DNA of 64,000 nucleotides, taken from Pyropia yezoensis. Taxonomy: Eukaryota; Rhodophyta; Bangiophyceae; Bangiales; Bangiaceae. The notes beneath the pieces are model-generated. The model was not told where the DNA came from. It saw only the letters and a list, made by a program, of their open reading frames with translations, and did not search any database. The position numbers and the translations under genes are program-made. Shown here piece by piece: positions 4,244 to 54,292 of the stretch (positions are counted from its first letter, which is position 1; each line of letters begins with the position of its first letter). The stretch is from positions 30,232,894 to 30,296,893 of the forward strand of contig CM020618.1 of assembly GCA_009829735.1 (NCBI GenBank), written 5' to 3'.

Positions 4244-6112
4244 ATGGCCGACGAGGTGGCTCCCGCCGTGCCGGCGGCTACCCCGGAGGTGGACTGCTCG
4301 GAGACCGAGCGGCCGGTGCGCGGGTTTTACCGTAGCCCGCAGGCGACCTACATGGTCGATGGTGTCGGCTTCGTGGCAGATGCGCCGTTGTTGGAGGCGG
4401 CGCGTTCCAACCGCTTGTTGGCGCTGCAGCGCATCCGTGACGCGCGGTGGGCAGCGCTGCCTAAGTTCCGGGACGTGTCCGTTGGCGGGGCGTTTCGCGC
4501 AGGCGAGTCCGTCTCGGATGTGCACGGGGATGCCGACCTTGGCCGACAAGGCCCAAAGCGGCAGGCGTACGAGGTCTTGTTGTTGAGCAAAGAGTTGTTG
4601 CGGTACGCGTCCACCGGTGCTCTGCACGTGTATCACCGGCGCCTTTACACCTGGGCACTGCGGTTCCGGGTTGGGAGCACCGAGACCTTCGTGGTCGCTG
4701 CCAATAACTTTGGGCGGCTGCGTCGCTTATGGACGTGTGCGGTGTTCCTTGAACGCGACTTGGCCGATCGGCTGGATGTCCCGATCGCGGAGGATCCTGG
4801 CATGGAGGGGTACTTGACCATGCTGGCCGACAAGGCGTACCCCGGGAACCCTCCGCCTGACCTCGACTTTGGTCCGTCGTTGAGCGACCTCCCGCAGCCC
4901 TTCCGGGCGCCGACGACGTCCATTCGTTTCCGTCGGTCGAACGACCTCGCGTCGATTGAGCGTCGGGGCTTGCTGGCCCCTGCCTGGGCCTCGAATCTGG
5001 TCCGTGCGCGACCGTTCTTCGACTTGAAGCGTTGGCTTCCGTGTCGCCCGTCCTGGTGGACCGAGTATGGTCCATACATGGAGACGCCGGTGGCGCTGTC
5101 TTACGTTGCCACTCGGCTGACGGAGGCGGATAATGCGGCGTGGGGCATCGTTTTCGACGAGTTCTTCTGCTTCCTGCTTGCCGCGTGGGTGCACTGGTTG
5201 GTCCACGACGGACTGTTTTGCCGGTTGGGTGACCAAGTGGTCGGGTGGTTGGACGGCTTGAGCGTAAGCCACCTGGCTGACGGCCCCGGCGGTGACGAGC
5301 GTCTGTTGACGTACCAGCGTATGCGGGAGGCGCACTCCGTCTTTCCTTGGACCACCGTGGTCGCGGACGTTCGTCGTCGTGACTACCACACGAGGGCCGC
5401 TCTTGGGGTGTATGTCAAGCTTGACCCGTCGGCCAAGTATGGCTTTGCTCTTCGCCAGCCGTGCGGCTCGTTCGACTGGAAGTACGATGCCACTTCGGCG
5501 GAGTCGCCCGGTGTGGGCCGGTCGGTCGACCGTGGAGGTCGTGATGCGGGTCGTCGAGTGCGTGATCGCACTCGTTCGCCTTCGCCGCCGGCGGTTGGTG
5601 GGTCACGTGACCGTGCTGCTGAGCCGTCGACGTGCCGCGGTGGCGATGAGCCGATGTGGCCGTCCGACTGGGCTCGCGTGGGAGCGGTTGCCCTGTTGGG
5701 CGCGGAGCGCGTTGATGCCTTGGCTGGCCGTAGTGTGCCTCGCGGTGCGACGGCCGGTGCCTTGGCAGTTGCGTGGTCGCGCCAGACCGTCGAGATGGAG
5801 GACGTTATCCGTCGGGTTGGTGGTATGACCGAGTCTCAGGCGGTGGAGGAGCTTCTCCTGGCCATGTCCCGTATGGCGGACCTCTCTCGGATTCGAGACA
5901 GCGTGCTCGCTGAGCTGCGTCACGCTCCCGTGGTGGAGGCGCGGGGTGAGAGTCCTCGTCGCGTCGACGTCAGTGCCATTCTTGGCCGGCGCCGGCGGCC
6001 CGTGTCGGACGCCGAGGAGGAGCCGGCTACTCCGGCGCCGGTTCGCCACGTGCGCTCGCGCGGTCCGTCATACGACGAGGACGCGCGTGGTCGTTACCAT
6101 CGTGGTACTTGA
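4244..6112 (+). CDS. antisense open frame of element A (622 aa)
   Basis: A single open frame of 622 codons lies opposite to gag-pol, between pol and the 3' LTR. Its start MADEVAPAVPAATPEV follows the minisatellite leader. Residues about 20-110 are mixed and look folded. Residues about 279-345 hold a METPVALSY motif and a hydrophobic helical stretch (FCFLLAAWVHWLVHDGLF). Residues 420-470 are Arg/Ser/Asp-rich. A helical block rich in Glu and Leu follows at about 515-565, and the end is Arg-rich (LGRRRRPVSDAEEE ... RGRYHRGT). No signal peptide, capsid, protease or polymerase motif is seen. Size, strand, position and the PxxxxY-plus-helix core resemble the antisense proteins of elements B1 and E, though the match is weak. 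Function unknown. The frame looks whole. Confidence 0.7.
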   Translation: MADEVAPAVPAATPEVDCSETERPVRGFYRSPQATYMVDGVGFVADAPLLEAARSNRLLALQRIRDARWAALPKFRDVSVGGAFRAGESVSDVHGDADLGRQGPKRQAYEVLLLSKELLRYASTGALHVYHRRLYTWALRFRVGSTETFVVAANNFGRLRRLWTCAVFLERDLADRLDVPIAEDPGMEGYLTMLADKAYPGNPPPDLDFGPSLSDLPQPFRAPTTSIRFRRSNDLASIERRGLLAPAWASNLVRARPFFDLKRWLPCRPSWWTEYGPYMETPVALSYVATRLTEADNAAWGIVFDEFFCFLLAAWVHWLVHDGLFCRLGDQVVGWLDGLSVSHLADGPGGDERLLTYQRMREAHSVFPWTTVVADVRRRDYHTRAALGVYVKLDPSAKYGFALRQPCGSFDWKYDATSAESPGVGRSVDRGGRDAGRRVRDRTRSPSPPAVGGSRDRAAEPSTCRGGDEPMWPSDWARVGAVALLGAERVDALAGRSVPRGATAGALAVAWSRQTVEMEDVIRRVGGMTESQAVEELLLAMSRMADLSRIRDSVLAELRHAPVVEARGESPRRVDVSAILGRRRRPVSDAEEEPATPAPVRHVRSRGPSYDEDARGRYHRGT

Positions 6113-6158
6113 GGGGTTGTTTGACGATGTGTCGAGTGTTGTGCCTATTGGCGTCTTG

Positions 6159-6680
6159 TCAGTCTAGCTTTGTCTTGCCTTGCCGACAGGCGTGTTTGTT
6201 TCTTGTGCGTTTGCATTGAAAGTGGAAGGCAGTCTTTGCCCATTGTGTTGACACCGAGTCGTGGTGTGATGTCGGATTCAAGAGTATGTACTCGCAGCAA
6301 AGCCGTTTGGCCTTTGTAAACCAGGCGGCGTGTTCCCAGCGGGGAGTGACCAAGAGTGTGTCCGTTGGATTAACTTGCAGGTCTGTGACCACTTGGTCGA
6401 GGGTGTGTACTAGGGGTATTCTCAGGCGTATGCCTTTTGAGTGAGGTTGCTCAGTGGTGGTGACGCCTGTACCTGCGTGGTATACCAAGGGACCGTACTG
6501 CCGGGTGAGCTCCGGTAGCTCCCTGTGTTGGCCCCACATGGGGAAGGTGAAGATACGACTTGCCGATGGCAATGTTGCCTTCATGTAGTAGACAGGGATG
6601 CTCTCCGTAATGGAGCGGTCTACGTTGTCCCATTGGACAATAGCCTGTATCACCCCCCATGGGTCGACGTAGACCGCCAT
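6159..6680 (-). CDS. short sense open frame downstream of pol in element A
   Basis: From the ATG at 6680 the minus strand encodes about 173 aa (MAVYVDPWGVIQAIVQWDN ...). An in-frame GTG at 6710 would overlap the end of the pol frame. Composition is ordinary protein-like, with Trp, Tyr, His and Cys well represented (IFTFPMWGQHRELPEL, WEHAAWFTKAKRLCCEYILL), unlike the low-complexity shadows elsewhere. No signal peptide or membrane segment is evident and I do not recognise the family. It lies on the same strand as pol, so it could be an accessory product or a C-terminal extension. Families B1 and E have no equivalent here. Confidence 0.45.
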   Translation of the reverse strand: MAVYVDPWGVIQAIVQWDNVDRSITESIPVYYMKATLPSASRIFTFPMWGQHRELPELTRQYGPLVYHAGTGVTTTEQPHSKGIRLRIPLVHTLDQVVTDLQVNPTDTLLVTPRWEHAAWFTKAKRLCCEYILLNPTSHHDSVSTQWAKTAFHFQCKRTRNKHACRQGKTKLD

Positions 6681-6699
6681 GATGGTGGGGTCCCATGAC

Positions 6700-9600
6700 T
6701 TAGTAGTCACAGTCTTGATGTCCGCAACACTTGTTGCGAGAGTTACTCGAGCCGATGTCTTTGTGGTTTTTTCGCCACGTGTATCCTGGTATTTCTACCT
6801 TTTTGGAACGCAGGTGTCTTATCACCAATTTACGTGGCAAGTTTTCCACCGGGTCCCAGGTGTCATCCTTAGGGGTATAATCATGCCATCGGACTTTGAA
6901 TTCGTAAGAATCCCCGCACCGTCGATGGGACATGAGCTTGTCAATGACGTATTCGTCGTGGATGGTTGGCTCCGGCCGTGGTTTGTCAAACCCATCGAGA
7001 AGTGGATGTGGAGTGGACTCGTCACAGTCGTCCGGGCGCGGTGCCGCTGTGGCGTGGTCGCTGTTGATGCGCTTCTCGATGCCATCGACGTCGATGACGA
7101 ACGTAGACTCGTCAGCGTCGACGACGACGTATGGCCCTACGGCCTTGCTCTGCAGCTTGTTGGCTCGTTGGTGGTTTGTCGTATAGACATAGTCGCCGAT
7201 CTTAATCTTGCGATTGCGTTCCCCAATGTGGGCGTCGAAGTTACGCTTGTAACGTTGCTGAGTTTTGGCGACGGCCTTGACGACGGCCGGGATCTGCAAC
7301 CGCAGTCGGGCCATGAACTCGCGCTTCCTCGCGAGCGGCGAGCCGTCGTTGAGGGTTTTTCGTTGGGCTACCGACGTGCCGGGTGGCAGGTTACGGACCG
7401 ATAGGTTCGGGATGCGTCGTGGAATGACAAGTTCGAAGAGTGCTAGTCCAGTGGACCGGTGTGGTTGGCTGTTGTAAGCCATCGTGAGGACGGGCAGCAG
7501 CTCGTCCCAGCGCTTGGGGTCCTCGGTCACGTAGTGACGTAGTTGCGTCGCAATGGTACGATTGTACCGCTCGACTTGACCGTTGGTCTGAGGATGGTAC
7601 GCGGTGGTGCGTACCGTCGCCACTCCGAGCACCTTCATCACGGCAATGAAAAAGTTCCACATGAATTGGGGTCCTTCGTCGGACAAGATCTTGTCCGGTG
7701 GGCCATAGCAGGCTATCCAATGTTCAATAACAGCGGAGGATACGGAGATGGCCGTGATGGTCTTGAGTGCTATGCACTTAGTTAGCTTTGCAAAGCGGTC
7801 GGTAATGACCAAGATGAACCGGTTGCCGCTTTTGCTTGCCGGCAAGGGACCGAGGATGTCAATTGACAATTCCGTCAGCGGTTCCGACGCAGGGAACAAG
7901 GTCAGCGGCGTCCTGTGCTTACGCAACGCCAGGCGGTTCTGGGCACAAGTGGTGCAGTTGGTAATGGTGTTGTGGATATCCGATATCATGGATGGCCAGT
8001 AGAACTTTGTTCTCATTGTGAAGTACATCTTGTTCATGCCCGGGTGGGCGGCCGTGGTGGCCATGTGTTGGAGCTTCAAGATGACATCTTGTTGCGACTT
8101 GGGGATGACCAGTTGGTCTCCATACGCAGTCTTGCGACATAGCGCGTTGTTGTCATCGAGGTAGAATGACTTGTGGCCTCCGTTTACCAGGCGTTATGCT
8201 GTGGCCGAGGTACTCCACCTCGTTGGAAAACCACTTGCACTTCTCAAGATTGAGAGTCACGCCAGCCTCCCGTAGTCGGGTAAGGACCTTGTCCACATCA
8301 TGGACGTGTTGTTTGGCGTTTGCCGAGAATATGATAACGTCGTCTAAATAGACGAGGCAGACCTGCCACTTGAGTCCGGAGAGGATAATATCCAGGGCAC
8401 GGTGGAACGTCGCCGGGGCATTGGTCAAGCCAAATGGCATAGTTGTCCAGTCGAAGATGCCATAGTGCGTGGTGAACGCCGTCTTTTCTTGGTCCTCTTG
8501 CCGCAATGGAACTTGCCAGTACCCAGCGGTACAGTCGAGAGATGTGAAGACCTTGGCGTCTCCAAGGGAGTCGAGGCAGTTCTCCATGCGCGGGAGGGGG
8601 TACGCGTCCTTCTTGGTGATGCTGTTGAGCCGTCGATAATCGACGCAGAATCGGGCCTTCCCATTTTTCTTGGGGACGATGACGACCGGACTGGTCCAGT
8701 CACTGTGACTTGGTTTAATAACCTTGAGCTTCAACATCTTGTTGATTTGATCGACAATGATCGCACGTTTGAACGCGCCGGTCCGGTAGGGTTGGGCCCT
8801 TATAGAGGCAACCCCAGGTGGAGTGACGATGGCGTGCTCTGTAGCGTGGATGACCCCGAGGGTCCCGTCCCACATCTTGCCATGCTTGGCCAACATCGAC
8901 TTGATTTGCGCATGCAAATGTTGCGGTGCCCCGTCGAGGTTGATGTCATCAAGAGACGGTTTGGGTTGCTCGGTCTCCGGGTCGGATGACCCCTTATCCT
9001 CCGTCGGGGCGGCGAGGACTTGCCCAAGGTGGGGTTCGGCAAACGCGAGGACGCACCCCTTTCGCAGGATGGCCGTGTCTGGCCCGAAGTTGCACACCTT
9101 AACCAGGAATGGTTCGTCAGGCTTGACGGTGGCCAGTCCGCGGGCGACTGCCATGGTCTTGTGTCGGCACATTCGTGCGTTTGGTTGGAGAGTAACCAGT
9201 CCCGGAGTGTCACAAGTGACCATGATCAATTCCTCGGTCTTGCCCTTGAGGCGTGTTTGCTTACATGCACGGACCTTAGTCGACCCCCCGGTCCATTGAG
9301 GTTCCATAACATTGTTGTACTGGATGCCCAAGATGGGAGAGTGAGCCGTCGAACGATCGTTCGAGGATTGCCAAACGATACGTTTGAGTCGGGGCCAGAT
9401 TGACTCCACGTGCTTGCCCGTAACCTCGGTCCCGAGTATGCACTTGACCGACAGGTTGGGGGTAACGTAATAACGTTCAAAGGCCTGAACCCTCCCGGTA
9501 TTGATGAACAAGTGGATGGCTTGTAGAGCATCGATCGTTTGCCCGTTGGCATCAACAATGTGCGGTGCACTGGTTAACGTGTCGGCGTAATCGCGCCAAT

Positions 9601-9772
9601 GTGGCGGTAGGACGTCCGGCCGGATAAGGTTGACGCCAGCTCCGGTGTCAAAGATGGGTCTCATACTGCGCGTAATCGCGAGCTCCGTGCTTATACAGGC
9701 AGCGATCTCATTGTGTCGGTGAGCCTTGCTCAGTATCTTGGTGACCTTCGGTCTAGCTTGTCGGGCAGGCAA
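6700..9772 (-). pseudogene. pol: pol region of element A (protease, RT, integrase, chromodomain)
   Basis: In minus-strand order: an aspartic protease motif (FDTGAGVNLI), reverse transcriptase with FCVDYRRLN, the TMPFGLTNAPATFHRA block and the catalytic YLDD, then integrase with its HHCC zinc finger (CTTCAQNRL), the core D-D-E residues (LSIDILGPL, DEGPQF, NGQVERYNRT) and a C-terminal chromodomain (FKVRWHDYTPKDDTWDPVENLP). Such chromodomains are known to steer chromoviruses to marked chromatin. The region is broken by a small number of breaks and is treated as a fossil. It follows gag on the same strand. Confidence 0.88.
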
Positions 9773-9807
9773 GGATGCGTCGGGGAGACTGCCCGTCGGT
9801 CCTCGAC

Positions 9808-11551
9808 TTACTCGTTTTTTGGGTCGGCCTTGCCGTCGCCGGTGTCGACGCGTCCGACGTCATCGTCCTCCAAGTCCGGCAGGACTTCGTTCTCGACGAT
9901 CGCGTTGATCTGCTTGCGGACCGAGTCGTCGATGAGTGCCATTACTCGTGCCTGACGTCGTTCACGACGGGGCTTAGGGCATTGAGAGGCAAAGTGCCCG
10001 CGCTCGCTACAGTTGTCACAGATGTCGTTAGCTCGCGGGTTTGGCGTGTCCGTGCGGACAGCCTGAACGGGGTCGAATGGTCGATCGACCGTGCGCGCTT
10101 GGGGCCCCGGGGTATAGTTAACTTGACTAACCTTGATCATGGCAGGCCGGCTGGCCTTGATGGACTGCCGCAGGCGAGTGGCGCCCTCCCAAAATCCTTG
10201 GGCAGCTGCCACTGTGTCCGCCATTGGGCGACCGGGGAATTGACTGTCCAGGACGCGGACGTTTGGCTTGATGAGGTCTGAAAGACCGTTGATGAAGACG
10301 TCCTTTACGTCTTGAGCGCAGAACAGGCCGCAGAGGCGATCGCACGCCGCCTCCACGCGGGAGGCAAACACGCGCGGGACCTCCGCGTCCACTTGAGTCA
10401 TCGTAATGATGTCGTGATAGGCTGTTGCCAGGCCGGCGTGAGTTGCGTACTTCTTGAGAAGCCAGTTGACTCCTTCACCATAGGTGGTGAGCTCGTAGCG
10501 CTTGCCACTAACAATCGTGTTGGCCGCGCTGGCGAATGCGCGCTTGGCGGCTCCCGCCAGCCGGAAGGCGATCAAGGGGAACGCCCGGCCGTGGGTCAGC
10601 CATGCCGCGTCGCAAGCTCTGCGAAAGGTGGTGAGGAAGGTGAAGACACCGAGGGAGTCGCCACCGTTAAAGGTCTCTTGACCTTGGAACGCGCCGTCAA
10701 GGCGCTTGTTCATCTTGCTCGCGTCCTTCACCATGGATGGTGTGTACTTGGTGCTCCGTCGGAGCAGGAAGTAGGCCCGGTAATCCAGGAGTGACTGAAG
10801 CGGCTGTTGCCGGGTCGAATGACCAACTTTCGGTCACCCAACTCCGTGAGTCCAGCGGCGGGCGCCGGTCGGCGCCGGTGACGACGCGCACGTCGACGGT
10901 GTGCGTCCAAGCTGTTCGTAACGGACTCACTGCTCGATGAGCTTGGGCTTGACGGCGGGGAAGGGTCTCAACGACCGTCATCAGTTTCGTCCGAAGACGA
11001 GGAAGACGAGGACGACGAGTTGTCGGATGACATCCCGTCCTCAGCGGATGATGCGCCTCCCTCCCGTGCGTTTGAACGCTTAGTCGAGGCCTTGACCTTC
11101 AGGTCCTCGACTTGGCGTTCCAACACGCGGATCCGACGGTTCTTCATCTGAAGAATGCCAACAGGCAGGCTGGCGTGGGACGCCCCCGGAGCAGGTCCCC
11201 GGGCCATCTTGCCCACCGACTGTGGTTCGACGTCGTCCGTTGACGATACGCCTCATTTGAGGTTGGCTTTCTCAGCTCCTCAAGAGTGGTCACCAGCTTG
11301 GTGTTGGACTTCTCCAACTCCTTGTTGGCGGCCTTTTGGGCCTCAAGACGGGCATGAAGTGCCTCCACCACCGCCTTCAAGCTCTCCAACTTGGAGGTAG
11401 TGACATCCTCCGAGTCAGGGTTGGGGGGGGTAGCATCGGGTGCCGGACGGCGGCTTGTTCCGCTCCCTCCGCCGGGTGGCGTGTAACCCGAAGGCAGGGC
11501 AATCCCCTTACCCTTCGAGCGCCGAGCGCCATCAGGGGCTCCCGAAGCCAT
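9808..11551 (-). pseudogene. gag: gag region of element A
   Basis: The region holds a coiled-coil N-terminal part with Ser/Pro-rich surroundings (LEAQKAANKELEKSNTKL), a central helical capsid-like part with a retrotransposon-gag flavour (LTTYGEGVNWLLKKYATHAG, VFASRVEAACDRLCGLF), and a nucleocapsid zinc knuckle CDNCSERGHFASQC of the CX2CX4HX4C type near its end. It directly precedes pol. The ATG at 11551 (MASGAPDGARR) is the likely start. It is broken in one or two places. Confidence 0.8.
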
Positions 11552-11750
11552 ATCGCAACCCGGCGTACTCGCGTCGGCGCGCCCTGCGTCGCCGACTAAA
11601 GGGTCCTCGTGGCGCGACGCCCGGCGTCGTCCAGCCTTCACCGATCGGTGATGTCGCCCGGCAACACCCAATCAAGCGATCGTCAACACAACTGCCACAA
11701 GGCACCAAGGAACACGTACGAGTGTACGGCAGCGCCGCACACGAGCAGTA

Positions 11751-11768
11751 TCCCCTGCTGCTCCACCA
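11751..11768 (-). promoter_or_regulatory. primer-binding site of element A
   Basis: TGGTGGAGCAGCAGGGGA on the minus strand begins one base inside the 5' LTR, the standard place for a tRNA primer site, and opens with the TGG that pairs with a tRNA CCA end. The same 18 bases follow the 5' LTRs of families B, B' and E. I cannot assign the tRNA. Confidence 0.82.
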
Positions 11769-11769
11769 A

Positions 11770-12177
11770 TGTGGAATATGTGTTACCCAATGAAAGGATA
11801 TGGGACCGACCGGCGCCCGGAAGGCAAAGAGGGAGCTATTACCGTAAAGGCAAAGAAGACAGACCTTTAGCTCCAGGACGTTCGATGGGGAGCAAGCCGG
11901 CCAAACGGCAGCGGCGAGCCCCCACGTCGCCTATACCGGGCGAAACAATTATGCCGGTCGAGCGACCGAGCGAAGGCCGGACGGCCGATCGCTACGAGCA
12001 TAGCAAACAATATAAAAGATCCCTCCAAAGCAAGGACAGATAAACAATGCAAAACAAAAGTAGGCCCCCAAAGGGCGAGCCACGAGCGGACCCAGACCAA
12101 CAAGGCTGGGACCACCAGTCAAGGGGGCTACTTGCCCGTAAATACCGGAAATCGGTACGGTGGGCGGATATGCTACA
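11770..12177 (-). repeat. 5' LTR of element A
   Basis: This is the 408-bp direct repeat of 2852-3259, with TG and CA ends. The target duplication CTGGG follows at 12178-12182. Confidence 0.95.
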
Positions 12178-12182
12178 CTGGG

Positions 12183-14106
12183 CACTTCGTGCGGCGGAGG
12201 GTGGTGGCTGCCGCGTGAGAGTGGTGTCGGTTGTGACACAGAGCTTGGGGAAGAGGGGCCTGTGGCACACACACCCCCGTCCCCGCCTGCTGCATGCCCT
12301 GACGCAGCCGCCCCGCCCCGCCGGAAAATGTTCAGAGGGCTCGCGCGACCGCCGCGGAAGCACCACGACGTGCGCAAACTCGACTGTCCACGACATGTAT
12401 CGTGGGGAGACTGTGGCAGGGGGGAGTTGGGAAACAGGGACTGTTTGTAGGTGGCGACCTGGTGGCACAACGCCCGAACACACACCTCCCTTGCAGGCGG
12501 ATGATAAAGACCACCTCGCGTCGGCGCCATGACGGCCTCACACTCTTCCGTTACGTAATGCCCGCCACCGGTGGCGTCACACCGTGGCCTGCCGCGAGGG
12601 AGCCCCCCCCTTCTGTGTCTCGTCCTGGTGGAAAACGCTCGCCATATGGGCTCGAAAGCCATCAGAACGGTCCTCCCGCCAATCAGAACCGAGGCTTCCG
12701 GGCGAGGGGGGGGGGCGGACGTGCTGAGCGTTCAGATTCCGAGGGAAGGATGATGTGGTGTCTGCAAGAGAGGCTGTCGCGAGAGAGAGAGAAAAGAGAG
12801 ACGCAGGTGTTGCTGACCGCAAACGGACGGCTGCGGGGTCCACGCTGGTGCCACCCGAAAAATCAGGGGCTGATCAATGTACATCGTTGGCGACCCGTGG
12901 AGTCACGCGGGAAGGGAACACAGGTGACATGGTTGCCATAGGAGACACCGCGACACACCCACACTAGCACCGCCCCACCAAAACCCCCTGTATACGGGGA
13001 GAGTACGGCCAATGCGGCGGGTCAAAGCGAGTGTTCCACCCGTTTCTCCCCCCCCACGTCGCGCGGACGAGCACATAGGGGGAGATCCGAGCCAGATTGC
13101 GATGCGTGCGCCGATCGTCGAGAAAAATTGTACGGTTTGGGGGCCATTTGGGGGCCATGATTGCGATCGACAGCGTAGTTGCGCTGTACTTGTCACGTTT
13201 GATCGCCCAAGAAACGCTTCGGAAGGATACGATCGCAGGCGATCCAGGAGGCTTGGACAGTATCTCCCCCGCCAAGATACAGCGCTTCGGTGGTCCCTAT
13301 AAAATATCCTAATGGGAATGGGCTTTGGTCCGGCACGGTGTAGCAATGGCTCCGAAATTTTACGCCCGATTTTGCCGCCCTCTGACATCGTTCTACACAA
13401 GTCCTGCCCCCCCGGTTGGGGAAGCACGGTTTTGTTTGGTCGTCCAGTCACAACCCGCCACGTGCTCCCATTTCAGCCTTAAATGAAATTCGCTTGGTCT
13501 TGGTCTCACTGTTGAAGGGTCTGCTCTCAACAATGCAGAACCTCAAAAGCAAAGTAGCCCCATATGGGGGCGTAAAACCCATACAATTGAATTGGGCTTA
13601 CGCCCACCCAAATCCAGTATCCCGGGGACATACTGGTGCCGGTCTCAGGGCACCCCATTCCCGGGTGAGCCGAAGGATCCCGGCGGGACCCACCGACTGG
13701 TGGCCATGCGGATAGCCGCGTGGCCACCCAGTGAGGGCTCCACGCGTGCGTGCCTTGGCACCGGTAGCACCGTATGCCACCGTATCGCCTGGGCAGTGCC
13801 CCGGCACGAGTGTTTGGGGATCTCTTGGATCTCCAAAGTGGCGGCGGTAGTGGCGACGGCGGCGACGGTGACGGCGACGGCGGTGGTGGTGGCGGTGGCG
13901 GCGGTCAAGGTGACCGTGACGGTGACGGTGGTGGCGATGGTGTGGCGGCTGCTGTGGGACCCAATGAGGCGCCGCCGGACCCTGGGGCGGCAGCGTCGGC
14001 ACCAGTGGACAAGCAGCAGCCAGTGCGTTTGCCGGGGACAAACCCCCACGCAAGGACCCGCAGCCGGCGCAGGCTGGTGCTCCAAGCCGGACTGCCACCA
14101 CAAGAT
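12183..14106. other. unassigned DNA between element A and the nested stack
   Basis: No gene can be supported over most of this 1.9-kb stretch. The longer open frames on both strands have no recognisable domain and unstructured composition. A TATA-like CTATAAAATA sits near 13298. From 13774 to 14106 a plus-strand frame is open with a Gly/Asp-rich run (about 13840-13940) and then QPVRLPGTNPHARTRSRRR. This frame may be the interrupted beginning of the gene that resumes at 58180 on the far side of the stack. Confidence 0.5.
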
Positions 14107-14575
14107 TGTGCCAGAACTGGCCCCACGCAGAGGGCATGGTGCGCCATACTGGGGCGGGAGACAAGTTGTCTGACACGTTTCTCCCTTTTTCATTTGATCC
14201 CGAATTTCCCTAAGTCAGGGTTACTTTGCTTGATAGTAAATCCAACATGGATTTGAGGGTTTTCTGCATTTTATCGTCTTGAATTTCCGTGTGGCCCGGT
14301 GGGCAAGTGCTGGGGTGGGAGATTCTGAGTGGCGAGATTCTGAGAAGACCCTGGAGGGATAAGGGGAAGGACAGCGGGGCTTGGCCTCGCTTCCCCGTCC
14401 CGACGAAGAAACTGTTGGCCCACACACCATCACCTTGTTTACTGGTGGGGGGCTTGCCCCACAACACGGATAGCGTGTGTGCGACTTGCTCTTCTTCCAG
14501 ATCCCCCGACACGGGAGGCAGCCCTTGTGAACCGCTTCAACTCGGGTGGTGCGTGTGCGAGTGGTTTTTGCCACA
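14107..14575 (+). repeat. 5' LTR of element B'
   Basis: A 469-bp LTR starting TGTGCCAGAACTGG and ending TTGCCACA, about 7% different from 57707-58174 and sharing its central and right part with the B1 LTRs. The first 100 bp differ strongly from B1, so B' is a separate subfamily. Confidence 0.88.
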
Positions 14576-14577
14576 TT

Positions 14578-14595
14578 TGGTGGAGCAGCAGGGGA
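14578..14595 (+). promoter_or_regulatory. primer-binding site of element B'
   Basis: TGGTGGAGCAGCAGGGGA begins two bases after the LTR, identical to the sites of elements A, B1 and E. Confidence 0.82.
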
Positions 14596-18273: not shown

Positions 18274-18275
18274 TT

Positions 18276-27028: not shown

Positions 27029-27033
27029 TTGAC

Positions 27034-32089: not shown

Positions 32090-32093
32090 TATT

Positions 32094-44500: not shown

Positions 44501-45184
44501 GGGTGCAAATAATTCCCAAACCACAGAAAAAGACAGAACAGGAACAACCCAACCGCTGCTCCCAAATGTCTCTTCCCAAACACTCCACAATCCCCTGCTG
44601 CTCCACCAAATATGTGGTATAAAACTCGATCCTCTCAGACACGTGTCAATATCCCTCGGGGGAAAGGGACAGGTAACACAGAAAGGGGAACTACGAGAAT
44701 GGTATGCCTGTTGCCTCACGTGCCTGCTCGCAGAGCAAACAGATACCACGGTAGTGCACACGGGAAGAGGAAAGCAACGCGCAGTTGTCTTTTTCCTGAG
44801 GGCGCGGGCCAAGGGCGCCTCGCTGTCCCTCTTAACGTGCATCTGGGGGAGCCTCGGCACGTTGGCCAGGTAGCCCCCCATAACCCCGAGTGGCCCCGAC
44901 CCGAGTCTAACCTCGTCAGGTCGGGGGCCACTATCACTACTAATTCTATTCCCACTCACTAATCTCACACTCCAATTCTCTCAAATCAAGTCCCTCACAA
45001 GTATGCAAAAACACCATCAGAATCCCTCTCTCGCGTGTGGATAGCGTAGTCCACCGCAGTCCCCAGTGCCGGGGCACGGGCCACGACCGCCAAACCATCA
45101 CCACACGGCGGGCGTGTACTGGCACCTGGTGCCCTCTGGTTGCAGTCCCGGGTCGGCGCCAAGTCGGGGCCAGGGATGCTTACA
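41517..45184 (-). mobile_element. inverted partial copy E2 of family E
   Basis: Minus-strand family-E sequence running from its 5' LTR (44613-45184) through the primer site (just left of 44611) and gag (ATG at 44401, zinc-knuckle region near 42900). It continues through protease (about 42400-42300) into the start of RT, where it meets the gap. It corresponds to the first 40% of E1. It has several breaks, more than E1. The outer end is followed by a family-A fragment, and no target duplication can be checked because the other end is in the gap. Confidence 0.88.
44613..45184 (-). repeat. 5' LTR of inverted copy E2
   Basis: A 572-bp family-E LTR on the minus strand, with TG/CA ends, a few percent different from the E1 and E3 LTRs. 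Confidence 0.9.
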
Positions 45185-45404
45185 ATAACACAGTAGTCCA
45201 CCCAAAGGGCGAGCCACAGCGGACCCATGCCGCAAACAAGGCTGGGGCCACCAGCCAGGGGGGCTACAAGCCAGTAAATACCGGTATTGGGACAATCCGG
45301 AATCTGGCATACCCCGTTGGCGAGCTTCGAGCCGTCCCGGCGAGGCTCCGATCCGGTGCGGCGCGGGCCCGGATGTGGCTACCTGCCCAGCGTGCGATGG
45401 AGGT
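45185..45404 (-). repeat. diverged fragment of a family-A LTR and adjoining 3' region
   Basis: The sequence from about 45196 (CCCAAAGGGCGAGCCACAGC) to about 45345 (TTCGAGCCGTCCCGGCGAGG) follows the end of the family-A LTR and the adjoining internal bases (3146-3300) in order, with many differences. It is therefore an old remnant of a family-A element, lying between the E2 and E3 LTRs. Confidence 0.7.
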
Positions 45405-45973
45405 GGTAGCATCCCTGGCCCCGACTTGGCGCCGACCCGGGACTACAACCAGAGGGCACCAGGTGCCAGAACACGCCCGCCGTGTGGTGATGGTTGGCGG
45501 TCGTGGCCCGTGCCCGGCACTGGGATGCGGTGGACTACGCTATCCACACGTGAGAGAGGGATTTCTGATGTGTTTTTGCATACTTGTGAGGGACTTGATT
45601 TGAGAGAAATTGAGTGTGAGATTAGTGAGTGGGAATAGAATTAGTAGTGATAGTGGCCCCCGACCTGACGAGGTTAGACTCGGGTCGGGGCCACTCGGGT
45701 TATGGGGGGGCTACCTGGCCAACGTGCCGAGGCTCCCCCAGATGCACGTTAAGAGGGACAGCGAGGCGCCCTTGGCCCGCGCCCTCAGGAAAAAGACAAC
45801 TGCGCGTTTGCTTTCCTCTTCCCCGTGTGCACTACCGTGCGTATCTGTTTGCTCTGCGAGCAGGCACGTGAGGCAACAGGCATACCATTCTCGTAGTTCC
45901 CCTTTCTGTGTTACCTGTCCCTTTCCCCCGAGGATATTGACACGTGTCTGAGAGGATCGAGTTTTATACCACA
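45405..45973 (+). repeat. left LTR of copy E3
   Basis: About 569 bp of family-E LTR, with an altered first few bases relative to the other copies and the usual ACCACA end. Confidence 0.9.
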
Positions 45974-46184
45974 TATTTGGTGGAGCAGCAGGGGATGATG
46001 GAGTGTTTGAGAAGAGACATTTGGGAGCAGCGGTTGGGTTGTTCCTGTTCTGTCTTTTTCGGTGGTTTGGGAATTATTTGCACCCGTTCACGGGAATCCC
46101 ATTCCTGGCTCTCCAACCCCTCTCTTGTGGTCTGGCGATCTTTGGACACGCAGGCAACTGGACTGTGGCTGTCAAGAGACCAAC

Positions 46185-47845
46185 ATGGCTACCCTCCCTG
46201 GCACGACGGTGCCCGAAGGGGTAGACCCCGCGTCCCTTGACGCATCCCTGGTCACCGCGGGGGACGGTGCCCAACCCGGCGTTCTCCCTACGGGTGAAGC
46301 AGACCTGGGGTGTGACATCCGGTAGCGGACTGGAGTCCACAGGCGGCCAAGCACCACCTGCTCCCGTTCCTCCGGCTGTTCCTCCTGTGGGAGCCACCCC
46401 GGGGTCAACGGCGTTTGGTCCGCTCGCAGCAGACGTCTCCCTCCTGTCGGTTCTACTCCTCAACCTCCAGGGATAGCCCCTGGTGTGTTTACTCCTGGAC
46501 CCACACATGGCAGTGGGTGTATACACCTCTTCCTGTTGGCACTAGCGATGCCAGAGGCACCGTTGTGACTGGTTCTACGGGTCTCCCTGAGACCTCGACT
46601 CCTGGGACCGGCCAAGCTTTTCCTCCCTTGCATCCTATGGGGCGGGGAGCTCCAAGACTGGTAACCGGAGCAGCCGAAGGCGTCGGCGTCATCGCCGTCG
46701 CTCTAGCACCAGCGAGACCAGTTCCTCCAGCTCTGAGGAGGGATATGATTGGGATGCATCTCCCGGTCCCACCCGGCCCAGGCTAGTCGAGTTTGACTTC
46801 CCTGCCCACCAAGTGGAGATGCCACCCTGAACAAGGTCACGTATTGGGGTAACTACCGGCTGGAGAACCAAGACCAAGGTTACACCCGGAAGATGGCCAA
46901 GAAGATGACATCCCTGAACCGGCGAATGCAGCCGAGCTTCGGGGGACATCCTAAGTTTTCCGGGAAGAGACCGGCGCTTATCTTTGCCTTCCTGCGCCGG
47001 TTTGTCAAGGCATGCAATGACAACGATGTGTCCGAGGGCAAGGCTCTCTACCTCCTGGTTAACTTCAAGAACGGAGAAGCGGAACAGCGGTTTGCACAGG
47101 TTCTACCAGACTCTGCCGGACACATTGTCGGACGTACCGTCGCGAGTTATCCGGAGGCGGTCAACTGGCTCCTGTCCAACTACGCTGACGCGGACTCTCT
47201 GCGTAAAGCAGTCGGCAGGCTGAACCGGGCAACCATGGAAAGACAAGAGACTCCAGAGGCGTTTGCCCGTCGTGTCCGGGAGATGAGCGATGCTTGTGGC
47301 AACGTTTACGCTGAGGACGGCTCAAGATGATCTTCTCGGAAGGGCTTCCTGAATATCTTCAAGTGGATGCGGAGAACTACAACCAGGAACATCAAGAACA
47401 TACCTTCCAGCAGTTGATGGCCTACACCCAGGGCAAGTACCGGCAAGCCAGGGCCCTCCAAGCTCCCATGGTATCAACTCCGAAGCCGTTGTCGCGAGTT
47501 CGACCCGGACCCGACAAGTATAAGGGAGGTGATAGCCCTGTACCGGTACTCGCAGTTGGCGAGGCCTCACCCGTGGGGTCAGGGGACAAGTGGGGCGGCT
47601 TCGTTTTTGAGGAGGAACCTTCCCTGGTCGCCCCCAAGCAGGTCAAGAACCAGCGGTTCCGGTCTTGTTGGCTGTGCCAGAAGGAGGATCACATGTCCTA
47701 CCAGTGCCCGACCATTCCCAAGGACCTCCAGGAGAAACTCAAGCGTCAAGGACTGGTGTTTGCAAAGGCGGTCAACTGGGCTGACCGGCGAGCACCCTCC
47801 AAGATGGACCAGGCACAGGTACACGCAATCCGAGAGGCAACCTGA
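46185..47845 (+). pseudogene. gag: gag region of copy E3
   Basis: This matches the E1 gag along its whole length, including the capsid-like helices and the CWLCQKEDHMSYQC knuckle. It has a few breaks. Confidence 0.85.
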
Positions 47846-48069
47846 CAGAGCATCACGGAGGCTCTGGCAAGGGAAGCTCCTACGGACTTTGACCTGGAGA
47901 CCGAAACCTCTAAGGACTCCTCGGACCCGGGAAACGAGTAGGGCAGGCGCTCTCCCCAAGTGTCTTCCCGAACCTCCAACGGCAGGGTACTTCTACCTGT
48001 TCTCCCCTTGCGTGCCGGGAGAAAGGACGGCGGTTACCTGCTCAACCGGTAGCCGCCTGGACACCCTGT

Positions 48070-51000
48070 TTGTTCAAGGGGACATTGCTCGTCCTGCGTA
48101 AGGAAAACCTCAAGATTAATGCTCGTATGCGTGTGGGGGATAGTCTCCCCCAAGCTGTTACGCCGGTGGTTGACACGGGAGCCGGACCAAGCGTCATCAC
48201 TGAGAACCTGTTACCTCCGCGCTGGCGTCGACATGCCTGGAGAGCGCCTACCCGGACCCATATCGTCGACGCTTCGGGTCAAACCCTACGACCGCTTGGC
48301 CGTCTTCCTGTCGCCATCTATGTCAACAATGAACCAATGCTTTTTCCCTTTCTAGTAGTCAAGACCCTATCAGTCCCCCTCATCCTAGGCTGGGACTTCC
48401 AGAAGCAGCATGTCAAGAGCATCCTACCCGGAGAAGGGAAGGTCCAGTTCAACCATGGGTTTGTGTCACCGGTATTGGAGCATCTGGACGCCAAGGTTCG
48501 TGTAGCCAAGAGCAAGAGGGAACGCATCCCACCCTCTACCTTGACTCTCTTCAAACCGGTGCTCCTACCTCCTCGCTCGGAGACCAAGGTTCAAGTAACG
48601 ACCCGGATTGCAGGTCAATGCCTGATCTACGGACGTAAGGAATTTCTGGCGAAACACCGGTTATACTTGGCCCACGGACATCACAAGAAGGTAGAAAGGC
48701 ACACCCCGTTCTCGGTGCTAATTGTCAACGTGAGCCGGAAGCCAATAACCCTCGCCAAGGGCACCCGAGTTGGTACAGCAGAGCCTTACCGGGGATCCGC
48801 CCGTGCTATGAGCAAGGAAGACCTCCTGAACCTGCAACAAGAACTGGCATCCAACTTGACGGCCTTAGACGTACCTCCGAAGCAAGAGCAGGCTGGCAGC
48901 GCTACTACGAAACCCCGAACAAGCACCACCCGGGATGCCGAAGGTCAAGCAAGAAAATGTCCCTCCCGACTTGAAGGAGGCACTGGAGAAGCTTCTCCAG
49001 GAATATCGGCACCTGTGGTCGGGAGAGCTGGGCAAGATGGACGCCACTCTACACCGGATTCAACTCAAGCCGGAAGCTAAGCCAGTGCACATGCAACCAT
49101 ATCGGGCCGGACCTCATCGCCGGGATGAGATTGAGAAGCAGGTTAACAAGATGCTCAAGATGGATGTTATCGAGCCGTCTGATGGCGAGTGGGCTTTCCT
49201 GGTGGTAGTCGTCCGGAAAACCGGCGGTCACTTCCGTTTCTGCGTTGACTACCGGCGCCTGAACGAGGTGACAGTCAAGGACGTATACCCGATACCCCGG
49301 ATGGATGATTGCCTCGACTTTATTGGTGATGCCACCCTCTTCTCGACGCTGGATTGCAATGCCGGGTACTGGCAGATCCCTCTGGCTGACGAGGACAAGG
49401 ACAAGACCACCTTCACGTGCCACCTGGGACTATTCCGGTGCAAGCGTCTTCCTTTTGGTATCACCAATGCTCCGGCAACCTTCCAAAGAGCCATCGACAT
49501 CATCCTGTCCGGGCTAAGGTGGAGAACATGTTTGGTCTACCTGGACGACATTATCGTTTTCTCCAAGACCCCAGCGGAACACCTGGAGCACCTTCGGAGG
49601 TCCTGGCCCTCCTGTCCAAGGCTGGAGTTACCCTCAAGGCCGAGAAGTGCCATCTGTTTGAGACTGAGGTGGAGTATCTGGGGCATGTGCTGAGTCCGGG
49701 GAAGCTCCGAGTCAATGAGAAGAACATCAAGGCCCTCCGGCATGCACGGCAACCTAAAACCCAGACAGAACTCAAGAGCTTCCTGGGTATGTGCAACGTC
49801 TATCGCCGGTTCGTACGGGACTATGCTCTGATTGCCCGGCCACTGACCAAGCTGACCAGCAAGAAGCTTCCCGCACAACTCCCGGTGCTCGACGAGAAGC
49901 AGACCGCGGCCTTCGAAGAGCTCAAGAAGCGCCTGACCACCACTCCAGTACTGGCGTTACCCAAGCGGGAGGGCCAGTTTGTTCTGGAGACGGATGCCTG
50001 TGGCGTCCAGGTGGGGTGCTCACTACTCCAGCAGCAACCTGATGGGCACTTCCTCCCGATAGGCTACTACAGTCGCGTCTTGACTCCAGCCGAGAAGAAC
50101 TATTCCACGACGGAGCGCGAGTGCTTGGCAGTCGTCTGGGCTTGCTTCCTGTTACGGCCATATCTTGAAGGACAAGAGTTCCTCATCCGGACGGATCACG
50201 CCAGTCTTAGGTGGCTGCTATGTATGGACAGCAGTCAAGGAAGGGTCGCCTGGTGGCGCCTCCGCCTTTCGGAGTTCAAGTACAAGGTGTGCACCAGAGC
50301 AGGGAGGGAGCACCACTGCGCCGACACCATGTCCCGGCTGGAGACTCCTGCAGCCGATACCGGTCCTATCCCGGAGGAAATACCTTGCTTCATCCTCCCA
50401 CATGTCGGACGTGGCTGGCACGCTCCCCTGTATGAGACACCTGAAGCTCATCAACCGGTGACCATTCACCGGATGCTGGAGGCACAACTGACGGATCCTC
50501 AATGCTTGGAGCTTCGCCACCAAATGGACCTGAACCGGAACAGTCGTTTCTCCGAGTCTACGGACGGACTCCTAGTACGGGTGTCACCCTTCGATGGGGC
50601 CACTCAAGTCTACGTACCCCGGGGCCTACGAGCTGACATCCTACGCCTAAAGCACTCGTCTCCCCAGGCCGGACATCCTGGTATCAATCGGATGTATGCT
50701 TCCATGAGACGACACTATTACTGGGAAACCATGGCCAGTGACGTCCATAAGTACCTGGAGGCTTGTGTTTCGTGTGCAAGGAACCGGTTGTCTCAGAGGA
50801 AGAAGACTTCTAAACTACGCCTATTCCCTGCGGCGGAGCCCTTTGCAAGCTTAAGCATGGACATCCTAAGGCCCCTACCTGAAACATCCAGTGGCAACAT
50901 ATACCTGCTCATCATATGTGACCGGTTCTCCAAGTTCACTCGAGCAATCCCGCTGAGGACCATCACGGCTCGGGATGTCACGTCAGCCTTCTGCGAGTAC

Positions 51001-52029
51001 TGGATAGCTGCCTACGGCCCTCCAGACTCCGTCTTAACCGACAACGGTCCCCAGTTTGCATCCCTGTTCTTCCAAGGAGTCTGTGACCTGATGGGCATCA
51101 AGAACTTGTACACTACGACGTAACACCCTCAAACGAACGGCCAGGTGGAACGATTCAACCGGACCCTAGTAGACATGCTACGGCACTACGTGGAGGAGCA
51201 CCAAGAAGACTGGGACGAGCTCCTGGCTGTCCTCACTCTAGCCTACAACTCCCGAGTTCACTGGACAACGGGGGTCGCTCCACTCGACTTTGTCACCCCA
51301 AGGCGGCTGACCAACTTCTCCCTGGAAAGAATACCAGACGGTCTCCAGCCTGCACTGAAGTCAGGTCCCAAGGCAAAGGATGAGTTCCTGAAACAACTGA
51401 AGCTCCTGCTCCCAAGAGTCAAGGAGTCAATCTCGAAGACCCAGGAGCGATACAAGCGGGGCTATGACAAGGGCGTTCGGGAAAAGAACAAGGAACTGGG
51501 TGGTGGCGACTGGGTTTTTGTGGACAACCATAGCAAGACCCGGGGGAAGCTGGACTCGAAGACGGATGGACCTTATGAGATCCTGAATACGGACGGTTGG
51601 ACCTTTCTTCTAGACGTGGATGGCTCCCCGTACCGCGTGAGCAGCGACCATGTCACCCGAGCTCCACCGCCAAGCCAACGGGACTTGACCCGGCGCAAGC
51701 GGGCCGCAGTACCCTGGCTATCCCAAGAAGAAGGTCGGGAATATGTCTACGTCAAGTTTGTGGACCATGCCTGGAGAGACGGACGCCTGTACCTGCGAGT
51801 ACGCTGGTTCGGTTTTAACCCGGCAGATGATACCTGGGAACCCTCAAACCGGCTACCCATCGCGGATGTCTGTGCCTACACGCGACGGAACGGGATAGAG
51901 GGCACTCCAGTGGCCAGAGCCGGCAAGATTCTGGAGTCGGACTCGGAGGAGGACCAAGAGGATGGGGCCAACCAAGACCCTCGGGACGAGCCGAGTTCAT
52001 CCGCAACGGATGCGGAACAAGAGGATTGA
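48070..52029 (+). pseudogene. pol: pol region of copy E3
   Basis: Protease, RT, RNase H, integrase and chromodomain lie in the same order and with the same motifs as in E1, nearly identical at base level. It has a few breaks. Confidence 0.88.
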
Positions 52030-52174
52030 GAAGAAGGGAACGGGTATATCAAGGAGAACACGCAATACAAGCATGGAACAATCAAGGAAAACAAGCACCC
52101 GCTCGGGCAACCCTTCTCTCCGCCTCTTCCCTCCTCGCTTCTCCCAAGACCTTCACCCTCCTTGCCTCCAACTA

Positions 52175-54292
52175 CTACTCCCGGCGCGGACGCTGAGCCG
52201 CGGGAGTGTCCTCCAGCGCTGCCTCCGCGGCACGACGGGAACCGGAGGAAGACGGGATGACGTAGTGCGGTGGACGCGGTGCATCCCGGTATGACGCCAT
52301 CGGAGTAGTACCGGTAGTTGCCGGGGGCTCCCGCTCATCCAGATATGCCCGTCGGCGCCCCTGGAAGCCAGTGAAGGTTTCTGACCACTGCTGGGCCAAG
52401 CCATGCCGCGTCAAGGTCGCCAGAAGTTCGCCAACCACCGGGCTGTTCGACATCTGGCCGCTGTCCGCGCAAGCAAACACCCGGTCGACCACGTTGTTCA
52501 AGACGCTGGCGTAAGTACCCAGCACCAGGGAGGACCCAACGCCTTCAACCTGCACCGGAAGACGACCCAGCTGGTCTTCAATCATACCGACGTCGTACTG
52601 GTCGCATGTCGGACCACCTTGGATCAGGTACCAGTCAGGCACCCGGAAGCGGGTAAGGCGCAGAGTCGGCGCCGGAATCTCGAACCGCCCCGAGGATGAC
52701 ACCACCGGACGGTCCACAACGGCCCCCGAAACCGGAGTACCCAACTCCAGCGGAGGCACAGCGCCGCCGGCGTTGGAAGAAGGCGTCCGAGGCGGAGCGG
52801 CCGGAGTGGTAGGCGACCGCACGGTCACCCCCAGACTCGCCGCAGACAGGCGCGGTGCCGGAGGAGCATGAAGTGCCGGCACAGCCGGAACAGGGCGCGA
52901 ACGCGCCGGCGACGGTTCAGGCGAGGCCACCGGGGCGACAGGTGCAACAGGAGAAAGCGGAGCCGCCGCAGACGCCCGACCGACCGCCGCGGCCCATCCC
53001 CACTCTTGCACCGGCGGCCCAACTGGCAGAAGATCAAGGGCGGCCGGGGCAGGAAAGCTGCCTAGCTGCGGCCACGCCGGAAGCGGCGTCGCCAGCTGCA
53101 CCTGGGCCGGAGAAGACTGGTAGACCACCTGCGCCCAACCGAAGCCATCCCGACGCGGGCGGTTCTGGTCGGCAATCGCGTTCAAGAAGTTCCGGTCATG
53201 CACCGGCACCAGACGCCGGAAGTCAATCATCGCCCGGAAGAGCCCCTTGTACTCTTCGTCCTGGCTGCACAGGAAGTCGACGGTCAACTTGTCGACAATC
53301 CAGACCATCAGGAGGTCAGGGAGAAACCAAAGCCGGTTGGACACCAAGACCTCGTGAAGCCAGTGGTTGGCCGCCAAGACTGTCATCTCGGACGTGTACA
53401 TCATGTACGGGATCGAGTGGAAGAAGCCCTTGATCGACGCCTGAGTCAAGGCGTCCAAGAAGTACCAGGTGAAAGGGATGCTGGAAGGAGCAAACCCGAC
53501 CGGGATCTCGACTTCCTGCTGCTGCGGGATGACCTTGGGGTAGTACGCCGCCCGGTTAGCCTTATCCAGCTTCCAGAACTCCTGATGGTTGCAGCTCACG
53601 AGGAAGTCACGCTGACGCCCGCGTCGCTCACCCTGCTCCCGTGCCGGTGACAATTTGGAGTACTTCCGGGTCAGGAAAGGCGGCTCCAGAGCGACCATGC
53701 TCGGACGGGGGTCGCAGTTCAGGCTCCCCGACCCCTTGAGCGCCTCGTCCCAGACCTTGAGCGCCCGGTGGACGTACCCTTCCTCCTCCGGCCACCGGAG
53801 AACGGACGCGGACACGCGACGCTCGGTCAAGGGTAGATCCAGCACCAGCGCGAAGGGGAGATCCTCCAGACGAGCAACCCAAGAGGAACCCGAGAAGCTC
53901 TGGGAGCGGTCTTGTGCCAGGCGCATCTGGTCCGCCGTGTGAAGACGAGCCTTATCCATCTCTGTCAAGACCCCGCGCTGGAGTTCCTTGCGCCAGAGGT
54001 CCAAGCAATCCTGCTGGCACTGGGCCGCGCCGGCGTTGCCGACCACCGTGGAGTAACGCCGGGCCGCCAGAGGGTCCTGCCCAAGAAGCATCTCCGGGAG
54101 ACCCACCGGGGGGGTCTCGACCGGGTGCATCACAGAAGCCGGGGGAACCCGATCCGTCCCCGCCGTGGCGACCGGCGCCGACATCGACACCCGAGGAACC
54201 GGAGGCAGGAGAGGGGCGCGACTACCCGAGTTCTCCTCCGCAACACTCGCCGCCGGAACCACGGGCCCAGCTTGGATCTCGGAACTGGACAT
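52175..54292 (-). CDS. antisense open frame of copy E3 (about 705 aa)
   Basis: The open frame extends upstream of the E1 version to MSSSEIQAGPVVPAA at 54292, which I take as the likely start. A longer in-frame reading into the LTR (to 54484) is possible but would place the start inside the repeat. The YYPK-VEIP-GF core, hydrophobic helices, Pro/Ala-rich linker and Arg-rich end are as in E1. The region upstream on this strand is only the polypurine tract and the LTR, so an antisense promoter would have to lie in or near the LTR. The frame looks whole. Confidence 0.74.
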   Translation of the reverse strand: MSSSEIQAGPVVPAASVAEENSGSRAPLLPPVPRVSMSAPVATAGTDRVPPASVMHPVETPPVGLPEMLLGQDPLAARRYSTVVGNAGAAQCQQDCLDLWRKELQRGVLTEMDKARLHTADQMRLAQDRSQSFSGSSWVARLEDLPFALVLDLPLTERRVSASVLRWPEEEGYVHRALKVWDEALKGSGSLNCDPRPSMVALEPPFLTRKYSKLSPAREQGERRGRQRDFLVSCNHQEFWKLDKANRAAYYPKVIPQQQEVEIPVGFAPSSIPFTWYFLDALTQASIKGFFHSIPYMMYTSEMTVLAANHWLHEVLVSNRLWFLPDLLMVWIVDKLTVDFLCSQDEEYKGLFRAMIDFRRLVPVHDRNFLNAIADQNRPRRDGFGWAQVVYQSSPAQVQLATPLPAWPQLGSFPAPAALDLLPVGPPVQEWGWAAAVGRASAAAPLSPVAPVAPVASPEPSPARSRPVPAVPALHAPPAPRLSAASLGVTVRSPTTPAAPPRTPSSNAGGAVPPLELGTPVSGAVVDRPVVSSSGRFEIPAPTLRLTRFRVPDWYLIQGGPTCDQYDVGMIEDQLGRLPVQVEGVGSSLVLGTYASVLNNVVDRVFACADSGQMSNSPVVGELLATLTRHGLAQQWSETFTGFQGRRRAYLDEREPPATTGTTPMASYRDAPRPPHYVIPSSSGSRRAAEAALEDTPAAQRPRRE

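What the first reader, a model, noticed from the sequence alone, without database searches (positions are those of the whole stretch)
4244..54292. Related antisense genes between pol and the 3' LTR in separate Ty3/gypsy families
Seen: 4244-6112 (A), 24277-26409 (B1), 38295-40253 (E1) and 52175-54292 (E3) are open frames of 620-710 codons opposite to gag-pol, always just inside the 3' LTR. A decayed relative exists in B'. The B1 and E proteins share an LV[ST]..(N)..EF block, YYPK, VE[IV]P-x-GF and following hydrophobic helices, at similar positions, although their LTRs are unrelated. The A protein has the same place, size and Arg-rich end but only a weak core match. Known: antisense open frames 3' of pol are described in some plant Ty3/gypsy elements such as Grande and Retand. 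Inference: an ancient conserved accessory protein of these elements, possibly nucleic-acid binding.
Basis: partly seen in the sequence, partly recalled or inferred. Interest (0 to 1): 0.87.

Follow-up and report, generated by a model that had tools for sequence, protein, structure and literature searches.

The report
Antisense accessory gene in algal retrotransposons
Several families of jumping DNA elements in a nori-type red alga carry, on the strand opposite to their usual genes, related copies of an extra protein-coding gene that selection has kept, which suggests that these elements use a protein whose job is still unknown.

Summary
The window lies in the Pyropia (Neopyropia) yezoensis assembly: its three large contigs match the published scaffolds. 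Elements A, B1 and E3 each carry a 622-769-codon frame antisense to gag-pol, between pol and the 3' LTR; 0 of 1000 shuffles of each region reach it. E1 has the same gene with its N-terminus out of frame.

The proteins are related. B1-A and B1-E core alignments beat 10,000 of 10,000 shuffles. A profile without B sequences picks out B1 and B' among 420 window frames and 2,105 shuffles. A-E kinship runs only through B1. Of two other families inspected, F held a relative in the same place and its sister G did not.

The frame is a gene: dN/dS is 0.18-0.23 between A and a 72%-identical subfamily (96 pairs) and 0.34 between B1 and the dead copy B'. Pyropia vietnamensis has relatives, 52% identical over the core.

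It matches no Pfam family, including the Retand antisense domain PF04195. I judge it a new protein family in a known layout. Its function, probably a nuclear regulator acting in trans, is inferred, not shown.

The parts
2852..12177 (-). Element A, Ty3/gypsy; 3' LTR 2852-3259, 5' LTR 11770-12177
   Evidence: LTR pair 408 bp, 99.0%; zinc knuckle, RT, integrase and chromodomain frames on the - strand
4244..6112 (+). Antisense gene of A, 622 codons; same start (MADEVAP) in subfamily A2
3978..4197 (.). 18-bp tandem repeat (12 copies) directly upstream of the A antisense gene; A2 has a different array with a similar GGCGGCCAAG word; none found (score 40 or more) upstream of the gene in B1, E or F
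17803..27030 (+). Element B1, Ty3/gypsy; LTRs 17803-18275 and 26558-27030
   Evidence: LTR pair 98.3%; RVT_1, RNase H, integrase
24277..26409 (-). Antisense gene of B1, 710 codons from TTG; probable ATG at 26220 (647 codons)
14104..58174 (+). Element B', older relative of B1, split by insertion of B1 and of the E cluster
   Evidence: LTRs 14104-14575 and 57704-58174, 93.0%; collinear blocks with B1
55200..57710 (-). Stretch holding the decayed antisense gene of B' (7 stops, 4 frameshifting indels against B1)
31519..41016 (+). Element E1; 3' LTR cut by the N gap 41017-41516
38295..40253 (-). Antisense gene of E1, N-terminal part out of frame; in this copy the pol frame overlaps its 3' end (stop at 38412)
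45406..55047 (+). Element E3; LTRs 45406-45973 and 54478-55047
   Evidence: LTR pair 98.6%
52175..54484 (-). Here the pol frame stops at 52027, before the antisense gene

Best explanation
Each of these red-algal Ty3/gypsy families carries a third gene, antisense to gag-pol, in the pol-3'LTR interval. SHOWN: the frame codes for a protein under purifying selection in the A and B lineages, and the proteins of A, F and B, and probably E, form one divergent family. INFERRED: the gene sat in a common ancestor of these elements and was mostly handed down with pol. INFERRED: it is translated from its own antisense mRNA, started near the inner edge of the 3' LTR or in the short upstream region, because no gag-pol transcript can encode it. 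INFERRED, weaker: the product works in trans as a nuclear regulatory protein of the element (expression, silencing escape or integration) and not as a particle or envelope protein.
For: Coding: dN/dS A vs A2 0.184-0.227 in 96 pairs; in the one pair read in six frames only this frame lacks stops. B1 vs B' 0.335, core 0.272, against a neutral minimum of 0.63 in 500 simulations. Homology: BLASTP 2e-8 and 3e-7 for single comparisons, hhalign E 1e-5 and 2e-5, 0 of 10,000 shuffles, recovery of B1 and B' by a profile without B. Prediction: antisense relative behind the pol of family F, 1 of 2 families looked at. A and F are close in both pol and antisense protein. Arrangement: 46 of 47 A-type antisense hits with a scored RT within 8 kb lie on the 3' side of an RT, on the opposite strand. 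Among the best-scoring copies, 54 of 63 (B) and 41 of 58 (E) have no stop. No membrane helix shared, so not Env-like.
Against: Nothing here shows transcription, nuclear localisation or nucleic-acid binding. E lacks the basic tail. Element G, sister of F in pol (77-84%), has no recognisable antisense gene at the one locus examined, so the gene is dispensable or replaceable there. Kinship of the antisense proteins does not clearly put B with E: B1 matches E at 1e-7 but the A-type P0011 at 2e-7 and A at 2e-6. The A-vs-A2 antisense gene is more diverged at silent sites (dS 0.95) than the neighbouring integrase (0.56), so part of its history may be exchange and not descent with pol. Within A and within A2, pN/pS is about 0.7 and not clearly below neutral.
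Confidence: 0.55

Rival explanations
1. Chance open frames in GC-rich DNA, or a shadow of coding on the gag-pol strand.
For: GC is 61-67% here, and runs of up to 527 codons arise in shuffles of these regions.
Against: 0 of 1000 shuffles reach any of the three; the gag-pol strand has runs of only 317, 191 and 213 codons. dN/dS is low in this frame, and the other five frames hold stops in the pair tested. Homologs in another species.
Confidence: 0.02
2. The antisense RNA, not the protein, is the product (double-stranded RNA control of the element).
For: Antisense transcripts of retroelements without coding capacity are described (review passages, PMC7264820).
Against: Selection acts on amino acids. 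An RNA role in addition to a protein role is not excluded.
Confidence: 0.04
3. Self-limiting factor: the protein lowers transcription or copy number of its own family, as retroviral antisense proteins may dampen sense expression (that effect is recalled).
For: Similar layout to HTLV antisense genes (mentioned in PMC11963269). A separate mRNA would allow feedback.
Against: Families B and E have many near-identical copies that keep the frame open. No domain evidence.
Confidence: 0.15
4. Particle-associated or entry-like protein (accessory capsid, Env-like).
For: Mostly helical low-confidence models; hydrophobic helices in the core.
Against: No similarity to gag of B or E (all E > 1; gag of A and F not compared). 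Membrane-helix windows (mean hydropathy 1.6 or more) in 2 of 6 proteins only, at different places. An antisense mRNA is not the usual source of particle proteins.
Confidence: 0.12
5. E's antisense protein is unrelated to A's and B's, and the shared place is convergence.
For: E matches only B1. phmmer (B1 or E as query, E up to 1) and the A+F+B profile (E up to 5) do not report the pair; E-A comparisons are at chance.
Against: B1-E BLASTP 2e-8, hhalign 2e-5, 0 of 10,000 shuffles. B and E are closest in RT among the three families of the window (50%).
Confidence: 0.1

Closest known systems
Retand-lineage plant Ty3/gypsy elements with antisense TRP28 proteins (Vicient 2025, PMC11963269; abstract, sections 3 and 12, and part 1 of 2 of section 11 read)
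   Same: Antisense gene between pol and the 3' LTR; antisense TRP28 frames in 97% of clusters; tandem repeats in the same region in about half; function unknown.
   Different: PF04195 has no match in this genome or in the proteins scanned. Retand is non-chromovirus, whereas A has an integrase chromodomain above cut-off. Host is a red alga.
Grande gene23 of maize (review passages, PMC7264820)
   Same: Antisense accessory gene in the 3' internal region; there a nuclear protein with its own promoter.
REM1 of Chlamydomonas reinhardtii (ORF3p recalled; a passage on REM1 seen in PMC2774666; the original paper is not held)
   Same: Alga; Ty3/gypsy; reverse-oriented reading frame.
   Different: By that passage REM1's reverse frame holds a truncated integrase with GPY/F module and chromodomain; here the integrase lies in the sense frame and the antisense proteins scanned hit no chromodomain or PHD finger.
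Boty of Botrytis (named in PMC7264820, passages only)
   Same: Antisense frame between pol and the 3' LTR outside plants.
   Different: Not compared by sequence.

Membership tests
Ty3/gypsy LTR retrotransposon (host elements) | Direct LTRs and order protease-RT-RNase H-integrase | tested here: met
   LTR pairs. Full order seen in E1 in one frame (residues 71-165 RVP, 433-592 RVT_1, 686-788 RNase H, 975-1064 rve). B: RT, RNase H, integrase in order, protease below cut-off. A: zinc knuckle, RT, integrase in order; no protease or RNase H hit in the frames scanned
Chromovirus | Chromodomain at the integrase C-terminus | tested here: inconclusive
   A: PF00385 33.4 bits, above the cut-off 25.1. B 20.0 and E 21.9 bits, below it. 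F not scanned
Retand antisense (TRP28) protein | Gene antisense between pol and 3' LTR | tested here: met
Retand antisense (TRP28) protein | Transposase_28 domain PF04195 | tested here: not met
   0 matches at E <= 10 in the whole genome; none in the proteins scanned. No profile-profile comparison was possible
REM1 ORF3p | PHD finger and chromodomain in the reverse frame | tested here: not met
   No such Pfam hit; the PHD feature is recalled
Grande gene23-type | Own promoter and nuclear protein | not testable with these tools
   No RNA or localisation data
Retroviral Env-like | Membrane-spanning helix, sense frame | tested here: not met
   Antisense; hydropathy windows of 1.6 or more in 2 of 6 relatives, at different places
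One red-algal antisense protein family (A, F, B, E) | Shared core by sequence | tested here: met
   A-F, A-B, F-B, B-E significant; A-E only through B

The most novel reading that the evidence does not exclude
A protein family particular to red-algal Ty3/gypsy elements, inherited with pol across deep lineages, acts as a self-recognising anti-silencing or expression factor, made from an antisense gene and, in the A lineage, reading the tandem repeats beside that gene. This would be a case parallel to, and unrelated by descent to, the antisense proteins of plant Retand elements and the VANC anti-silencing proteins of plant DNA transposons (VANC recalled, not looked up).
Probability: 0.15. Interest if true: 0.85.

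Novelty: new variant of a known kind. Interest (0 to 1): 0.6.

Why it matters
Antisense genes beside the 3' LTR are described in flowering plants and a fungus (PMC7264820, PMC11963269) and a reverse frame in a green alga (REM1, partly recalled), and their function is open. A protein without detectable likeness to these, in the same place in red algae, suggests that the place is favoured for an accessory gene with its own transcript and that different elements may have filled it independently. Copies of B and E are numerous, near-identical and largely open among those scored, so the question of what such proteins do could be tested in an alga that is grown in culture. Two relatives are annotated as 'hypothetical protein' in P. 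vietnamensis, so such genes may be counted as host genes.

Tried and rejected
Structure: two AlphaFold2 jobs (A with 9 sequences, pLDDT 36; A core with 13 sequences, pLDDT 46) were too poor for a fold search, so none was run. PDB sequence searches gave nothing credible: 9 matches at E 0.65-2.3 for the profile, none for B1. Pattern scans of viral contigs (A, B and E alignments) and prokaryote contigs (A only) confirmed no relative. The B1 and A protein searches were capped at about 8,000 scored candidates, so more relatives may exist. A shared C-terminal helical domain looked plausible by eye, but only P0011-F (z 4.9) and A-F (z 2.9) were above shuffles; pairs of B1 or E with the others gave at most z 2.4. 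An RS-dipeptide excess beyond composition was not found in any of six proteins. A methylation-type CpG decay in B' was only slight. Tandem repeats upstream of the gene are not general. The first within-family and A-A2 dN/dS run used the wrong strand for part of the loci and is discarded in favour. Within-family pN/pS for B (0.217; 0.150 in stop-free copies) and E (0.293; 0.314) rests on copies picked by protein score, which biases it down, so the A-A2 and B1-B' tests carry the argument. E-values are for small home-made databases.
Full report
WHERE. The genome search places the window at C1:30232894-30296893 of an assembly of 107.48 Mb. Its three large contigs are 43.6, 34.3 and 29.4 Mb. The published Pyropia yezoensis scaffolds are 43.6, 34.3 and 29.4 Mbp, with 48.0% of the genome predicted to be repeat elements, LTR retrotransposons predominant (PMC7423979, passages). 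I take the host to be P. yezoensis.

ANATOMY. Self-comparison of the window gives element A (2852-12177, minus strand), B1 (17803-27030) and the older B' (14104-58174), which is interrupted by B1 and by a cluster of E copies: E1, an inverted partial E2, and E3. A, B1 and E1 show Ty3/gypsy pol domains. A has an integrase chromodomain above Pfam's cut-off; those of B and E are below it.

IS THE FRAME REAL? The longest stop-free runs on the antisense strand (A 626, B1 716, E3 766 codons) exceed all of 1000 dinucleotide shuffles of each region (maxima 478, 457, 527). Position-2 GC is lowest in each. Between A and a subfamily A2 (72% protein identity), 96 pairs (8 by 12 copies, 6 of the 20 with stops) give dN/dS 0.184-0.227 with dS 0.93-1.03. 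In the one pair read in all six frames, only the antisense frame lacks stops. B1 against the dead copy B' gives 0.335 over 643 clean codons, and 0.272 in the core, although part of that divergence arose after B' died. 500 neutral simulations with the observed substitution spectrum never fell below 0.63. Among the copies scored, 54 of 63 of B and 41 of 58 of E have no stop; these lists hold only the best-scoring copies, so they are not a sample. Within A and within A2, pN/pS is about 0.7 at very small divergence, which says little.

ARE THEY RELATED? Two-sequence BLASTP gives B1-E 2e-8, B1-A 3e-7, and nothing for E-A (best 0.096). hhalign gives E 1.1e-5 (probability 81.5) for A-B, 2.3e-5 (75.8) for B-E, and 0.24 (0.3) for A-E. 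Against 10,000 shuffles, B1-E and B1-A cores have z 12.9 and 10.0, with no shuffle reaching them. A profile of five A-type proteins found the B' frame (4.4e-5) but not B1. With F added it found B1 (6.4e-6) and B' (2.6e-5), and no other of the 420 window frames or 2,105 shuffles beyond A and F themselves at E up to 5. Single-sequence phmmer did not report B1-E or B1-A, and the A+F+B profile did not report E. I therefore hold A-F-B as firm and E as probable.

A PREDICTION TESTED. A search with A's reverse transcriptase showed a family F whose RT is 53% identical. I fetched the 6 kb behind its pol, and behind that of a related element G. F has an antisense frame of 995 codons that matches the A-type protein of P. 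vietnamensis at 5e-21, A at 3e-15 and B1 at 3e-5 in a small database. G, 77-84% like F in pol, has about 2.9 kb of GC-rich repeats there and no relative. So 1 of 2 predicted places held the gene. More places could not be fetched.

DESCENT. A and F are close in integrase (55%) and in the antisense protein (1e-15). B and E are closest to each other in RT (50%, against 44% for A-B and 37.5% for A-E). In the antisense protein B1 matches E (1e-7), A-type P0011 (2e-7), A (2e-6) and F (1e-5) about equally well, so the order there is not resolved for B. The picture fits inheritance with pol but does not prove it. Against simple descent, A and A2 differ more in the antisense gene (dS 0.95) than in the adjoining integrase (0.56), and their LTR parts align at about 90% while the stretch upstream of the gene is barely alignable. 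I read that as possible exchange of the pol-3'LTR interval between sister families.

SPREAD. The A-type protein has eight database relatives: two annotated as hypothetical proteins of P. vietnamensis (52% over the query stretch 18-425; one cluster of 74 sequences) and six unnamed at 39-54%. B1 and E each have one unnamed near-identical relative (95% and 97% identity). Of 74 A-type hits in the genome, 47 have a scored RT within 8 kb, and 46 of these lie on the 3' side of an RT, on the opposite strand; 27 have none scored nearby. Conversely 39 of 62 A-type RT hits (75% identity or more) have a scored antisense hit on the expected side. Both lists are capped and contain gene pieces, so these are rough lower bounds.

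WHAT IT MAY DO. No Pfam family, PDB sequence or usable model points to a function. B1 and F carry strongly basic tails with NLS-like runs, A a weaker one, E none. There is no shared membrane helix and no likeness to the gag of B or E. An antisense gene needs its own transcript. In maize Grande the gene in this place has its own promoter and a nuclear product (PMC7264820, passages), and a regulatory role is the published guess for Retand (PMC11963269, section 12). By that analogy I favour a nuclear regulator acting in trans, and mark it as inference.

KNOWN OR NEW. The layout is known. The protein is not the Retand one by the Pfam test: PF04195 gives no match in the whole genome. Paper searches that combined red algae or Pyropia with antisense and retrotransposon words listed no description of it (a red-algal genome search; listings only). 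In the two Bangiales genome papers that I searched by term, 'antisense' does not occur in the main text. Most subscription papers are not held, so this is weak evidence of absence.

Noticed in passing
window 45185-45405: The short stretch between E2 and E3 matches the A-type 3' LTR region (3132-3299) at 80.7% over 176 bp, so an A-like LTR remnant lies inside the E cluster.
   Followed up: no
G000:C3 about 4.07-4.10 Mb: A2 elements form a tandem array with a period of about 7,836 bp in both RT and antisense hits (three of each).
   Followed up: partly
A-type RT hits at 76-84% identity: 12 of the 20 rows in this identity range carry three or four TGA stops each, as expected if a few CGA codons decay repeatedly; CpG decay in B' was only slight.
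   Followed up: partly
L060 2144-5020: Element G has GC-rich internal repeats where its sister F has the antisense gene.
   Followed up: partly
window 41017-41516: A 500-N assembly gap cuts the 3' LTR of E1 and the end of E2.
   Followed up: yes
window 61778-63283, minus strand: Dyskerin-type pseudouridine synthase gene (DKCLD, TruB_N, PUA) in one open frame.
   Followed up: no
window 440-2353, minus strand: Open frame with a NAM-associated domain (PF14303, above cut-off).
   Followed up: no
window 37245-38414 and 51124-52029: In E1 the pol frame runs on to a stop at 38412 and overlaps the antisense gene tail to tail; in E3 the frame stops at 52027, before the antisense gene, so the overlap is particular to one copy.
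   Followed up: partly
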